Assembly (NCBI GenBank): GCA_028707085.1
Contig: JAQTUW010000016.1
Span: 1 to 64,000, forward strand
Reading direction: 5' to 3'
Length of the DNA: 64,000 nucleotides
DNA from: Methylococcales bacterium
GTDB lineage: Bacteria > Pseudomonadota > Gammaproteobacteria > Methylococcales > Methylomonadaceae
Shown here: positions 3,906 to 9,400 of the stretch, one piece after another
Position numbering within the stretch: position 1 is the first letter of the stretch
Layout of the letters: each line of letters begins with the position of its first letter
Position numbers and translations under genes: made by a program
Notes under the pieces: generated by a model
Databases searched by the model: none
Told to the model about the DNA's origin: nothing
What the model saw: the letters and a program-made list of their open reading frames with translations, nothing else

Positions 3906-4958
3906 AATTCAGTTACTAAAAGTTGCTCACGAGAGGCTACGGAATACCCAGGATCAAACAGCGCAAACCCACTTCACCCGGCCCAGAAAAGCCGGACAAG
4001 CTAAACATCCGGGTTGTTAACACTGTTTCAGCATCTTTCTGCGTCGAACCGGACGGATCTTAGCTACCCGGGAGTTCCCACTTTTCTGCCTTTACATCTA
4101 TGACTAACCAAAAGCCTAAGCGCATCTTCGCATTGCAACTCATATCGTAATGAGCGCACATAGCACATTTGTTTTCTTAAATATCCAGAACCCGGAGACT
4201 CATTTTCGCGGCAAAGACAATTTCTAACACTAACCCGCATCCGGAAACCGCATTTCCCGATTTCCTGCAATTGAGTCATGGATCATTCACCTGCAATTTG
4301 GCTCATAATCTGTTTACATAAAATCATGCAACCCATGATAACGCCCCGACATTCGATAAATACCGGAAAGGCGCAAGCTGAAAACTGTCCGGGGGATAGA
4401 AAATAGTCGCGTAAAATCAACCTGAACCAATCATAGCGCATTTCAGGCAGCGCAAATGCATAAAAATTTAGAGGCAAAATGCTATAGAGTATTCGCACAT
4501 CAAATCCGGGTTTTCATAATCCTCCTACCCTTCCTGTAGCAGAGGAAACTGAGGCGCCACAATTAGATGTGCAATAATTATATTCTAGCATGGAAGCGCC
4601 CTCTCAGGCAGTCATGTAACGTTTCCAAGGAATCTCGGATTTGTTCGTCCGGTTTGACGCAAATTCGACAGCAGATGGCGAATACCCGCCATTCCGGCCG
4701 ACATCTTCGGCAACCAGCATTCAACTTGCGAGCAATTTTTTGTTTCCTCGCCGTTTTGCCAACCACACTACCAAGAGGCTGTCCGTCAAAAGAAGATGGA
4801 CGAACGACTGCTTGTCCTCAATCCCTTCCGGTAGGCGAGAAAATATAAAAATGCTAAAAGTGATCGACGCCAGCGATACGTTCAACCCCGGTAAACAGAA
4901 CATTTCAAACCATGTTCCACACTAGTAGTCCGCCAATTTTGTTTTGACGAACAGGCTA

Positions 4959-5066
4959 ATCTGCTGCCGGGGTATTTTGACAGAGGTTTAGGCGGCATGG
5001 ATGCCGACTCAAGCCTACATGGATGTATTCACGGCGTCCTCTGGCGGAATACCCCGGCAGCAGATG
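4959..5066. repeat. Small inverted-repeat-bounded intergenic element
   Basis: Perfect 18-bp inverted repeats ATCTGCTGCCGGGGTATT (4959-4976) and AATACCCCGGCAGCAGAT (5049-5066) bound a 108-bp segment without a plausible gene. Confidence 0.7.
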
Positions 5067-5102
5067 GGTAGCTCTATTCATCATTGTAACATTGGCGAAC
5101 CA

Positions 5103-5268
5103 CTAGGAGCCTGTCCGAGAATAGAAAACCTACTGCGGAAAAGCCATTTTGGCCGGATTTCCTGCGCATTTTCGTTAAATAGCGCAACTATTCCGCCTCA
5201 AATGCCCAAAAAATCCAACTCAAAAGGCTTTCCCTCGCTACGGCTTTTATTCTCGGACAGGCTTCTAG
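5103..5268. mobile_element. MITE-like element, copy 1
   Basis: CTAG-GAGCCTGTCCGAGAATAG...TTATTCTCGGACAGGCTT-CTAG; about 166 bp including flanking CTAG; near-identical to 6211-6374. Confidence 0.8.
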
Positions 5269-5309
5269 GAGACTCATTTCAATTTTGTCGCAGGGTGGAC
5301 AAGAACCAT

Positions 5310-6164
5310 TCAGGTTTTCTGCTCGGGCAAACTTATATTTTCCACCCGTTCAGGCGGAACAGGATGCAACGGCTTTGAATATCTGGATTGAATCTGCTTT
5401 ACATAATTGCGCGTTTCCTGAAATGGCGGAACGCCATGATATCTTTCGACCGCCGCCTCGCCAGCATTATATGCAGCCACCACCCACTCGACTTTTCCGT
5501 CGAAATGGCGTAGCAGCCAGTGCAGATACGCCGTGCCGCCTTTTATGTTCTGAATGGGATTCCAGGTATCCTTAACGCCAAAACGTTCGGCTGTTTCAGG
5601 AATTAACTGCATCAGTCCCTGGGCATTTTTGCCGGACAACGCTGCGGAATTAAAACCCGACTCCACCTGGATGACAGCCATTACCAACTGCGGATCGATA
5701 CCATACCCCAAGGCAATTTGATTGACCCAGGCCGCAACCTTCTGTCTTTCCGGACTTGATTCCAAAACAAAACGAAATGCCGGCTTGGCGGGCTTGCAGT
5801 CATTGTCGGCGACCGGCTCGACATCCCGGAACCTGACCAGCATGTTTTTCGCATGCGGGTCGCCACCATCAGCCGCCTGCTTGAACCAGTGCATGGCCAG
5901 ACCTGAATCCCTGTGTACGCCTCGGCCATTAAAATACATAAAGCCAATATTGTATGCCGATTCGACATCCCCTTCGAGCGCAGCCTGACAATACAAAGCA
6001 AAGGCTTGCCGGTAATCCTGCCTCACACCTTCCCGGCCATGCTCATAAGCGACAGCCTTAAGCCGGATTTTATCTGTCGATTCGGCCACTTCTCCGGCGA
6101 ATCCCAAACGCTCCAGGCAGCTTAAAATCAACACAAGCATTAACTGTTTTTTTTTATTCGACAT
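5310..6164 (-). CDS. Lytic transglycosylase (SLT domain) with Sel1-like repeats
   Basis: Sel1-like ...SAYNIGFMYFNGRGVHRDSGLAMHWFKQAADGGDPHAKNML; SLT motifs VMAVIQVESGFNSAALSGKNAQGLMQLIPETAERFGV and VVAAYNAGEAAVERYHGVPPFQETRNYVKQI. Confidence 0.92.
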   Translation of the reverse strand: MSNKKKQLMLVLILSCLERLGFAGEVAESTDKIRLKAVAYEHGREGVRQDYRQAFALYCQAALEGDVESAYNIGFMYFNGRGVHRDSGLAMHWFKQAADGGDPHAKNMLVRFRDVEPVADNDCKPAKPAFRFVLESSPERQKVAAWVNQIALGYGIDPQLVMAVIQVESGFNSAALSGKNAQGLMQLIPETAERFGVKDTWNPIQNIKGGTAYLHWLLRHFDGKVEWVVAAYNAGEAAVERYHGVPPFQETRNYVKQIQSRYSKPLHPVPPERVENISLPEQKT

Positions 6165-6210
6165 TTGCTTGCTCTCTAAACAGTTGTAAAGCCGAAAACC
6201 TACAAAAAAC

Positions 6211-6374
6211 CTAGGAGCCTGTCCGAGAATAGAAAACCTACTACGGAAAAGCCATTTTGGCCGGATTTCCTGCGCATTTTCGTTAAATAGCGCAATTCCA
6301 CCTCAAATGCCCAAAAAATCCAACTCAAAATGGCTTTCCCTCGCTACGGCTTCTATTTTCGGACAGGCTCCTAG
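6211..6374. mobile_element. MITE-like element, copy 2 (same orientation as copy 1)
   Basis: CTAG-GAGCCTGTCCGAGAATAGAA...TTCTATTTTCGGACAGGCTC-CTAG; differs from copy 1 by a few substitutions and small indels. Confidence 0.85.
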
Positions 6375-6495
6375 CCTTCCAGAATGCCGGCGCATGCCAA
6401 TAACAGCCACTTTGCTCAGTTTACAACGAATTGGCTATTTTCACCACTGTGACAGTTTCAAGATTGCCAGCCACTGCTTCCCGGCGTACTTCCGA

Positions 6496-9400
6496 TCATG
6501 CCTTTTTCTGCGTAAACCGCCCAAATTTCAATAAAACGGCCGGCAACATCAGCAAATTCAATACTGTCGAAGAAGCAAGTCCACCTATGATTATAGCGGC
6601 CATCGGCCCCATTATTTCCCGTCCCGGATTATCGCTATCAATAGCGATAGGCAGCATCGCCAAGGCAGTGACCAGCGCGGTCATCAGAATTGATGGCAGC
6701 CTTTCCTGCGCGCCTCTTACCGCAGTACCATATCCCCATGGCAAACCGTCCACTTCAACCAAATGCCGATAATGGGAAATCAGCATAATGCAATTCCGCA
6801 CCGTGATGCCAAACAGGGTAATGAATCCGACAAAAGAACCCACCGATAAAGCCGAATGGGTCACCAGTACAGCGGCAACGCCACCCAGCAAGGCAAACGG
6901 CAGGTTCACCAGTGTCAGGCAGGTATGCCGAACACTGCCCAGGGCGACATAAATCAGCAGCAAAACACCCGCTCCGGCCAGCAAGGCATGCAAAATCAAA
7001 GCCTGTCTGGCTTTGGCCTGCTCCAGCGCCGCACCGATAAATTCCGGATACACTCCTTGCCGCCAATTTATTTGATTTAATACTTTGCCTTTCAATTCAC
7101 TAATGAATTCATCCATATCCCGATCATCGACATTACAGGTCACTGTAGAAACACGTTGAGCATCATGATGCAAAATATTGTAGCGGCCTTCCGTATGCCG
7201 AATATCGGCAATCTCGCCCAGCAACACCCGCTGACCATCGGCATTTTTCAACGCTAATTGTTGCAAGGACTCCGCCTGCATGCGTAACGACTGCGGCAAA
7301 GTGACAACCACGTTGACGATGCGGTTCCCGTGTATGTTTTTACCGACCATGCGACCTTCGTAAGCGGTTTGCAGCGCCGTCATGACCTGCCCGGAATTTA
7401 TTCCCCGAAACCTGAGCTGCTCCGGATTCAACTGCACCTGCAACATCGCTGTCAGAGGTTGCGAACGCAACTGCACATCTTCGACACCAGCCATGCCATT
7501 CATAATCTGCCGTACACTTTGCGCCTTATCATCCAGTAGCGCCAAATCGTTACCGTAAATATTGACCACAACGGCGGCCGTGTAACCGGAAATGGTCTCA
7601 TCCACTCGCTCTGTCAAAAAGGTGTTGGCCTCATAATGTATCCCCGGAAAAACATCCAGAATTGCCCGTAAACTATCCAATACTGCTTGCTGTTCAAATC
7701 CGGACAACGGTTTTAAACGCACTTCGTATTCGCTGTAATGACTACCATAAGTGTCAGCCCCGCGCTCTGCCCTGCCGGCCCATTGCGAAACCGATTCGAC
7801 ACCTCCTATATCTAAAAATTGCCGAGTCAGTTGAGCGCCAATCCGTATCGACTCCTGCAGCGATGTCCCCGGTACACTGGCCGTATGCACGATGAAATGA
7901 CCTTCACGCAATTCGGGCAAAAACTTATGCTCCATTCGCAAGAAAGCAATCATCCCCAACACGCACAACCCCATCCCCAGGCCCGCGAGCGGATAAAAAT
8001 ATTTCAACACCCAACCGAGCATTTTGGTGTACATTGGTTTTAATCGCCTAACCAAAGGCGGATCAGGTTCGTCAGGCAGACGCTTGTTCAATAGCAGACT
8101 GCACAAGGCAGGCGTCAAGGTCAAGGCCACCAGCAAAGACATCAGAATGGCCAGAATATAGGAATATCCCAAAGGGGCAAACAGTCGTCCAGCCACACCG
8201 TCCAGGGTTAGCAAAGGCACAAAGACCAACGTGATGATAAAACTGGCGTAGACCACCGAACTGCGCACTTCCATCGATGCCTGATAAATGACTTCGCTCG
8301 GCTTGCCCGGTCTGACTTGCAACTGATTTTCCCGTAAACGCCGAAAAATGTTTTCGGTATCAATGATTGCATCATCCACCACCTCCCCCAGCGCAATCGC
8401 CAGGCCGCCCAGAACCATGATATTCAAATTGGCCCCGCTCTCCAGTAACAAGATGACGGCCATCATCAGCGATAGCGGGATTGCCAGCGCAGCAATCAAG
8501 GCGCTTCGAAAATTGAACAAAAACAGATAAAGAATCAGCACCACAAAAAAACCGCCTATCAACAGATGCCGGGATAAATTCTGAACAGAGGTTTCAATGT
8601 AATCGGCAGGCCGAAACAGATGTGAATAAAAATTGATGGATTGCTGTGCGAATAAAGGCCCAAAATCGTTCAATACGGCTTCGACCTGTCTGGATACCGA
8701 CAAGGTATTGGCGCCATACTGACCGATGACCATTAATACAATGCCGGGGTTACCCATAATTTGCGCTGCCCCGATTGGCGGTTCTGCCGAATAGGCAATA
8801 TCGGCAACGTCACCCAGAGTAATATTTTCACCGTTCCGCCGCTTGACGACCACCCCTCTGAATTGCTCCGGATTTACCGGCTGACCCGTGATTTGCAGAG
8901 TAAAGCGCTGATTGCTGTTTTCAATAAAGCCCGCGCCATTCATTTCCGCCGCACCGCCGGCAGCAGTGACGATATCTTCTATCGCCAGATTGAAACGCTG
9001 CAGCGCATCGGGTCTGATCTGCACCTGCAATTGCTGAATATCGCCGCCGAACACATTGATATCGGCAACGCCGGGAATGGCCAGCAGACGCGGCGTCAAT
9101 GACCAGTCCACCAAGGTACGCAACTCCATCAAGGTTCTGACATCCGAACTCATGCCCACAGTCAGCACAGTTGCCGAGGACGAGGACAAGGGAACGGCCA
9201 CTGGCATCGCTATTCCGGCCGGCAAACGCTGACTGATACTTGCCAGCCGTTCACTAACCAACTGCCGGTTACGATAGACATCGCTATCTTCGGCAAATGT
9301 CGCCGTCACAATGGACAAACCCTGAATCGACTGGGATCGCAAGGTTTTCAGGCCGATCAAGCCGCTGATGGCGTTTTCGATCTGCTGGGAAACCAGCACT

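What the first reader, a model, noticed from the sequence alone, without database searches (positions are those of the whole stretch)
5103..6374. Two near-identical MITEs in direct orientation tightly bracket a lytic transglycosylase gene
Copies at 5103-5268 and 6211-6374 share TIRs (GAGCCTGTCCGAGAATAG / CTATTYTCGGACAGGCTC-like) flanked by CTAG, and differ by a few substitutions and small indels. They end about 41 bp after the stop and 46 bp before the start of the Sel1-SLT gene, giving a composite-transposon-like layout without a transposase. CTAG flanks are consistent with IS5-group target preference (established for IS5). The direct repeats could also drive recombinational loss of the gene.
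Basis: partly seen in the sequence, partly recalled or inferred. Interest (0 to 1): 0.6.

Follow-up and report, generated by a model that had tools for sequence, protein, structure and literature searches.

The report
Twin jumping-DNA hairpins beside a gene
Two copies of a 158-base, gene-less jumping DNA element sit either side of a cell-wall-enzyme gene, most likely by separate insertions at the rare sequence CTAG; their ends match an IS1182-type transposon rather than IS5, and the same constant-length hairpin is scattered through many unrelated proteobacteria.

Summary
Two 158/156-bp elements, each flanked by CTAG, lie in direct orientation 41 bp after and 46 bp before a Sel1-SLT transglycosylase gene. 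They are MITEs, with 18 near-complete copies in this genome (genus of Methylomonas sp. FW.007). The IS5 assignment is wrong: intact IS1182-family elements in other genomes, and a contig-truncated one in the same genus, carry the same ends (CTAG-GAGSCTGTCCGAGAA). The window genome itself holds only an IS1182 remnant with a different end. The composite-transposon reading is not supported: both copies are closer to copies elsewhere than to each other, and 26 congeners have the gene without the repeats, though always among other neighbours. A second, unrelated MITE-like repeat (4926-5102) shares the CTAG at 5103, so three CTAG-bounded insertions cluster here; CTAG is about six-fold rarer than base composition predicts. 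The unexpected part is the element itself: the same 166-168-bp quasi-palindrome occurs in 70 distinct copies from many Gammaproteobacteria and a few Desulfo-type MAGs, with 36 of 64 arm pairs changed on both sides and conserved internal loops. Hairpin-less MITEs with the same ends are also multicopy, so ends plus CTAG seem sufficient for movement; why the hairpin is conserved remains open.

The parts
5103..5268 (+). MITE copy A1: CTAG + 158 bp + CTAG
   Evidence: 17 further near-complete copies in the genome; imperfect hairpin
5107..5124 (+). left TIR of A1, GAGCCTGTCCGAGAATAG
   Evidence: same as ends of IS1182-family elements L265, L326, L327
5247..5264 (-). right TIR of A1 (2 mismatches)
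6211..6374 (+). MITE copy A2: CTAG + 156 bp + CTAG, direct orientation to A1
6215..6232 (+). left TIR of A2
6353..6370 (-). right TIR of A2 (1 mismatch)
5310..6164 (-). Sel1-SLT lytic transglycosylase gene between the copies (284 aa); host gene, not part of the element
   Evidence: orthologues at about 59-67% identity in 26 congeners, none with flanking MITEs
4922..5106 (+). second, unrelated MITE-like element B (CTAG 4922-4925, body 4926-5102, CTAG 5103-5106 shared with A1)
   Evidence: further copies next to CTAG in L005, L008, L015, L016, L023; overlaps a sub-threshold TwoAYGGAY match at 4942-5086

Best explanation
Both repeats are copies of one non-autonomous MITE family mobilised in trans by an IS1182-family transposase that recognises the end GAGSCTGTCCGAGAATAG and inserts at CTAG, duplicating that 4-bp palindrome. 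The two copies arrived separately at two CTAG sites beside the gene; the gene was not carried by them. CTAG is rare and is regenerated at each end of every insertion, so insertions pile up at the same spots; element B adjoining A1 is an example. SHOWN: copies, ends, CTAG flanks, IS1182 elements with matching ends elsewhere, non-sister copies, arm covariation. INFERRED: mobilisation in trans, separate arrival, and that the CTAG pair is a target duplication (no empty site was compared).
For: 18 near-complete copies in G000; all 14 inspected copies have CTAG at both ends and no longer shared flank. Complete elements of 1802-1824 bp (L265, L325, L327) lie between CTAG and ends matching the MITE; L326 (same genus, truncated by its contig) has the identical 21-nt end CTAGGAGCCTGTCCGAGAATA. 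The L239/L265 transposase scores 409 bits against a cut-off of 270 for NCBIfam transpos_IS1182. Other IS1182 elements (Pseudomonas; ISAzo1) also sit at CTAG with the related end CAGCCTGTCGGACTT or close to it. A1 and A2 are 94.6% identical to each other, but A1 is 97.0% and A2 95.2% identical to the copies in L002/L003; L002 and L003 are identical copies at two loci, consistent with recent movement. CTAG: 40 in the window against 249 expected from base composition and 70 from a second-order model.
Against: No intact IS1182 with this end was found in the window's own genome (only a remnant of the CAACCTGTCGGACTT subtype at C44), though the assembly has 73 contigs. Beyond roughly the first 18-23 nt the MITE does not resemble the ends of the IS elements read, so it is not a simple internal-deletion derivative of them. 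No empty site was compared, so the duplication could formally be TA within CTAG.
Confidence: 0.86

Rival explanations
1. The pair forms, or formed, a composite transposon: the outermost ends (5107 and 6370) were used together to bring the transglycosylase gene to this place.
For: MITE-gene-MITE layout of 1264 bp with inward-facing outer TIRs. The four relatives scoring best by the neighbouring efflux gene (G022, G010, G017, G004, 77-79% identical) have only SLT-domain matches, no orthologue of this gene, and no relative examined has the gene among the window's neighbours.
Against: A1 and A2 are each closer to copies elsewhere than to each other. The gene is present without repeats in 26 congeners. 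No second copy of the unit was found. Differing neighbours also fit ordinary rearrangement.
Confidence: 0.06
2. The elements derive from an IS5-group insertion sequence.
Against: Relatives of that IS5 group end in GGGCACCTCGAAAAACC-type repeats; elements with the exact TIR encode IS1182 transposases.
Confidence: 0.03
3. In addition to being mobile, the 158-bp element is kept by selection as a folded DNA or RNA structure (an ERIC- or Correia-like structured repeat). Not exclusive with the best explanation.
For: Constant 166-168 bp length across many genera, conserved interior and internal loops; 36 of 64 pairs changed on both sides, 220 such cells against 63 shuffled and at most 74 when slid. 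Hairpin-less 116-bp MITEs with the same ends are multicopy in S141_33, so the hairpin seems not to be needed for movement.
Against: No orientation bias towards neighbouring genes (19 versus 19 tandem, 13 convergent, 13 divergent). Template switching between the arms of a quasi-palindrome can create paired changes; L166 and L170 look like such corrections. No Rfam family matches above threshold.
Confidence: 0.3

Closest known systems
IS1182 family insertion sequences (ISAzo1, Pseudomonas IS1182; 1.8-kb members in L265, L325, L327)
   Same: CTAG target and near-identical or identical TIRs; the IS transposase has DUF772 + DDE_Tnp_1 domains
   Different: The window element has no transposase, is 158 bp, and shares only about the first 18-23 nt of each end
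MITEs assigned to ISMac2 (IS1182) in Methanosarcina acetivorans (PMC3852290)
   Same: 160- and 169-bp non-autonomous partners of an IS1182 element, 14 and 7 copies in the table
   Different: Archaeal, one species; only the table row was read, so whether those interiors fold is not known here
ERIC / RU-1 and RU-2 (PMC2759123 abstract) and Correia-type repeats (own knowledge)
   Same: 127-168-bp mobile intergenic repeats of constant length
   Different: Different hosts; here the ends and the CTAG target tie the element to IS1182, and the host range crosses classes

Membership tests
MITE (non-autonomous IS derivative) | short, no transposase ORF, terminal inverted repeats | tested here: met
   158/156 bp, 18-nt TIRs
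MITE (non-autonomous IS derivative) | multiple dispersed copies | tested here: met
   18 near-complete copies plus isolated ends in G000
MITE (non-autonomous IS derivative) | target duplication on insertion | tested here: inconclusive
   CTAG at both ends of 14 of 14 inspected own copies and 53 of 70 across taxa, but no empty site compared
IS1182-related | TIR and target shared with an IS encoding an IS1182 transposase | tested here: met
IS1182-related | mobilisation by that transposase | not testable with these tools
   needs a transposition assay
IS5-related | TIR shared with an IS5-family element | tested here: not met
   GGGCACCTC-type ends in the IS5 group present
Composite transposon | flanking copies act as one unit carrying the gene | tested here: inconclusive
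   non-sister copies, gene without repeats in relatives, but neighbours differ
Known Rfam RNA | match above gathering score | tested here: not met
   nothing above threshold in 4800-6500

The most novel reading that the evidence does not exclude
A single 158-bp quasi-palindrome with conserved internal loops has spread through Gammaproteobacteria and a few Desulfo-type lineages while holding its length and restoring its base pairs, although movement by the shared IS1182-type ends does not need the hairpin; the folded structure itself is then under selection, as a DNA or RNA device carried on IS1182 ends.
Probability: 0.3. Interest if true: 0.65.

Novelty: new member of a known kind. Interest (0 to 1): 0.4.

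Why it matters
The bracketed gene is best read as a coincidence helped by target-site preference. The element is worth more: it links a MITE family, for which the literature searches here found no description, to an IS1182 subgroup through its ends; it shows how CTAG targeting leads to stacked insertions; and it offers a natural test of whether a MITE's interior can be maintained for its fold independently of transposition. It also warns that MITE-gene-MITE layouts should not be read as composite transposons before the relationship of the copies is checked.

Tried and rejected
IS630 (TA within CTAG): no DDE_3 match in the own genome. IS701 (DDE_5): none in the own genome, no matching ends in the relatives searched. 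IS5: the apparent link in C43 is a remnant whose group has other ends. Exact-TIR IS among the first 110 genome contigs: none by paired-end search; the lead came from the Pseudomonas plasmid on which the MITE abuts an IS1182 remnant. Literature search with a 10-nt TIR string gave no relevant title in the 20 of 49 papers listed; IS1182 with MITE or CTAG gave few papers. RNA function by strand: no orientation bias; G-U cells 57 in one strand's reading against 98 in the other, not decisive. No match in phages or E. coli genomes. Empty site on the Pseudomonas plasmid: no other plasmid covers the locus.

Full report
OBSERVATION. The two repeats are real. Each is CTAG-158 bp-CTAG (156 bp for the second), in the same orientation, 41 bp after and 46 bp before a 284-aa gene with Sel1 repeats and an SLT domain. 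The TIR motif is found four times in the window, none expected. Folded alone, A1 gives a long imperfect hairpin on either strand (z -8.3 and -11.1) and A2 on the + strand (z -9.9).

COPIES. The window genome (3.02 Mb, 73 contigs) holds 18 near-complete copies and many isolated ends. All 14 copies whose ends were compared have CTAG on both sides and no similarity outside it. The genome's copies form one clade apart from those of other species (99/98), with two identical copies at separate loci, i.e. a lineage-specific amplification. The genus is that of Methylomonas sp. FW.007: the same-genus relative G026 and the genome behind the FW.007 locus (G065) show the same contigs.

PARENT FAMILY. The only plasmid match is on Pseudomonas sp. 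MPC6, where the element abuts an IS1182 remnant ending CGACAGGCTG-CTAG. Intact IS1182 elements (Pseudomonas; ISAzo1) lie at CTAG with ends CAGCCTGTCGGACTT or CAGCGTGTCGGACT. Searching MITE-bearing genomes with IS1182 transposases gave elements bounded by the MITE's own end: L239/L265 (1824 bp, 502-aa transposase), L266/L327 (1802 bp) and one-ended copies in L267, L269, L271, L282 and, in the window's genus, L268/L326; L325 (1817 bp, 516-codon frame whose start reads like the L239 protein) came from the pattern survey. NCBIfam names the L239 protein IS1182 (409 bits, cut-off 270). IS1182-linked MITEs of 160 and 169 bp are already tabulated for Methanosarcina (PMC3852290), so the kind is known. 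Not shown here: that the transposase moves the element. The window genome has only an IS1182 remnant with another end subtype, so its copies may be stranded unless a full IS is missing from the assembly.

BRACKETING. A1 and A2 are 94.6% identical to each other; A1 is 97.0% and A2 95.2% identical to copies in L002/L003, so they look like separate insertions (most forks among the genome's own copies are unresolved, so this rests on the pairwise identities). The search for the gene across 61 genomes returned loci for 29 relatives; the 26 congeners (about 59-67% identity) carry no MITE pair, but none has the window's neighbours, and the neighbours vary among them. The four congeners scoring best by the efflux gene have only SLT-domain hits. 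Movement of the gene is therefore neither shown nor excluded. By simple arithmetic, 18 copies placed at random in 3.02 Mb give about 0.12 pairs within 1.2 kb; the CTAG preference (40 sites in 64 kb against 249 by composition) and the regeneration of CTAG at each insertion should raise this. Element B (4926-5102) shares the CTAG at 5103 with A1, an example of such stacking.

THE ELEMENT ACROSS BACTERIA. The 21-nt end occurs in at least 110 stretches of genome contigs (the scan stopped at its limit), and the commonest spacing of paired ends is 166-168 bp. In a sample of 369 genomes of the class, 16 genomes of 14 genera have the 19-nt end, with zero control hits. The contig scan also hit records titled Desulforhopalus, Desulfofustis, Desulfocapsa, Desulfobacteraceae and Mariprofundaceae. 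Of these outlying records only some hold the 158-bp type: L080 (Desulfuromonadaceae) and L089 (Deltaproteobacteria) are in the alignment, and L098 (Mariprofundaceae) reads as a slightly shorter form; L112 and L142 hold 147-bp elements with the same ends. Seventy distinct copies align with a conserved interior. In 38 diverse copies 91.5% of cells pair, 36 of 64 pairs have a change on both sides, and 220 cells do, against 63 in shuffles and at most 74 in slid controls. Related sequences inflate the shuffle control, while the slid control keeps relatedness. The structure was derived from this alignment, so the percentage paired is biased upward.

MEANING OF THE HAIRPIN. In S141_33, which also has the intact IS1182, 116-bp MITEs with the same ends and CTAG flanks but no internal hairpin (z from 0.1 to -1.3) occur in five loci. 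TIRs plus CTAG thus seem enough. Copies of the 158-bp type show no orientation bias (simple ORF calling), which speaks against a strand-specific RNA role. Two copies (L166, L170) look like quasi-palindromes corrected to near-perfect ones, so template switching probably contributes; it does not obviously explain why the internal loops persist. I leave this as the open question.

LIMITS. No empty site, no expression or transposition data, one genome per species, and many hosts are MAGs whose contigs break at repeats. Searches of IS families in relatives covered 20-36 chosen genomes, not all.

Noticed in passing
window 4922-5106; L005, L008, L015, L016, L023: A second CTAG-bounded repeat family (ends about TAGTCCGCCAATTTTG / TGGTTCGCCAATGTT, roughly 180 bp) containing ATGGAT hairpins; overlaps a sub-threshold Rfam TwoAYGGAY hit (35 bits, cut-off 43). 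It may be another MITE family, and the Rfam motif may include mobile repeats.
   Followed up: partly
L029 (G000 C49) near 2433-2600: Apparent chimera: left part of element B joined to the right end of element A at CAGCAGTAGG.
   Followed up: no
L024 (C36 start) and L026 (C16 end): A 28-nt MITE end joined at the same base to the same sequence in two different genomic flanks; in L024 it reads into what looks like an IS4-type transposase fragment (not tested). Either one target used twice or a larger element carrying the MITE end.
   Followed up: no
G070 (Sedimenticola CSMAG_2797): L082, L096, L140, L156: Copies lengthened in steps of about 49-50 bp; those read carry inserts with ATGGAT-type palindromes in the MITE arms.
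   Followed up: no
L040, L078, L097, L104, L114, L155, L160, L164: In 8 of 64 copies the adjacent open frame ends at the TAG of the element's CTAG, so the gene keeps its stop (simple ORF calling).
   Followed up: no
L112, L142, L173: 146-147-bp MITEs with the same ends but a different, also hairpin-forming, interior.
   Followed up: no
L028 about 2389-2450, L034 about 2510-2572: Roughly 60-bp mini-palindromes with MITE-like ends in the window genome, not flanked by CTAG.
   Followed up: no
L244 (G000 C44) 1404-1912: About 500-bp IS1182 remnant with end CAACCTGTCGGACTT, the only IS1182 trace found in the window genome.
   Followed up: partly
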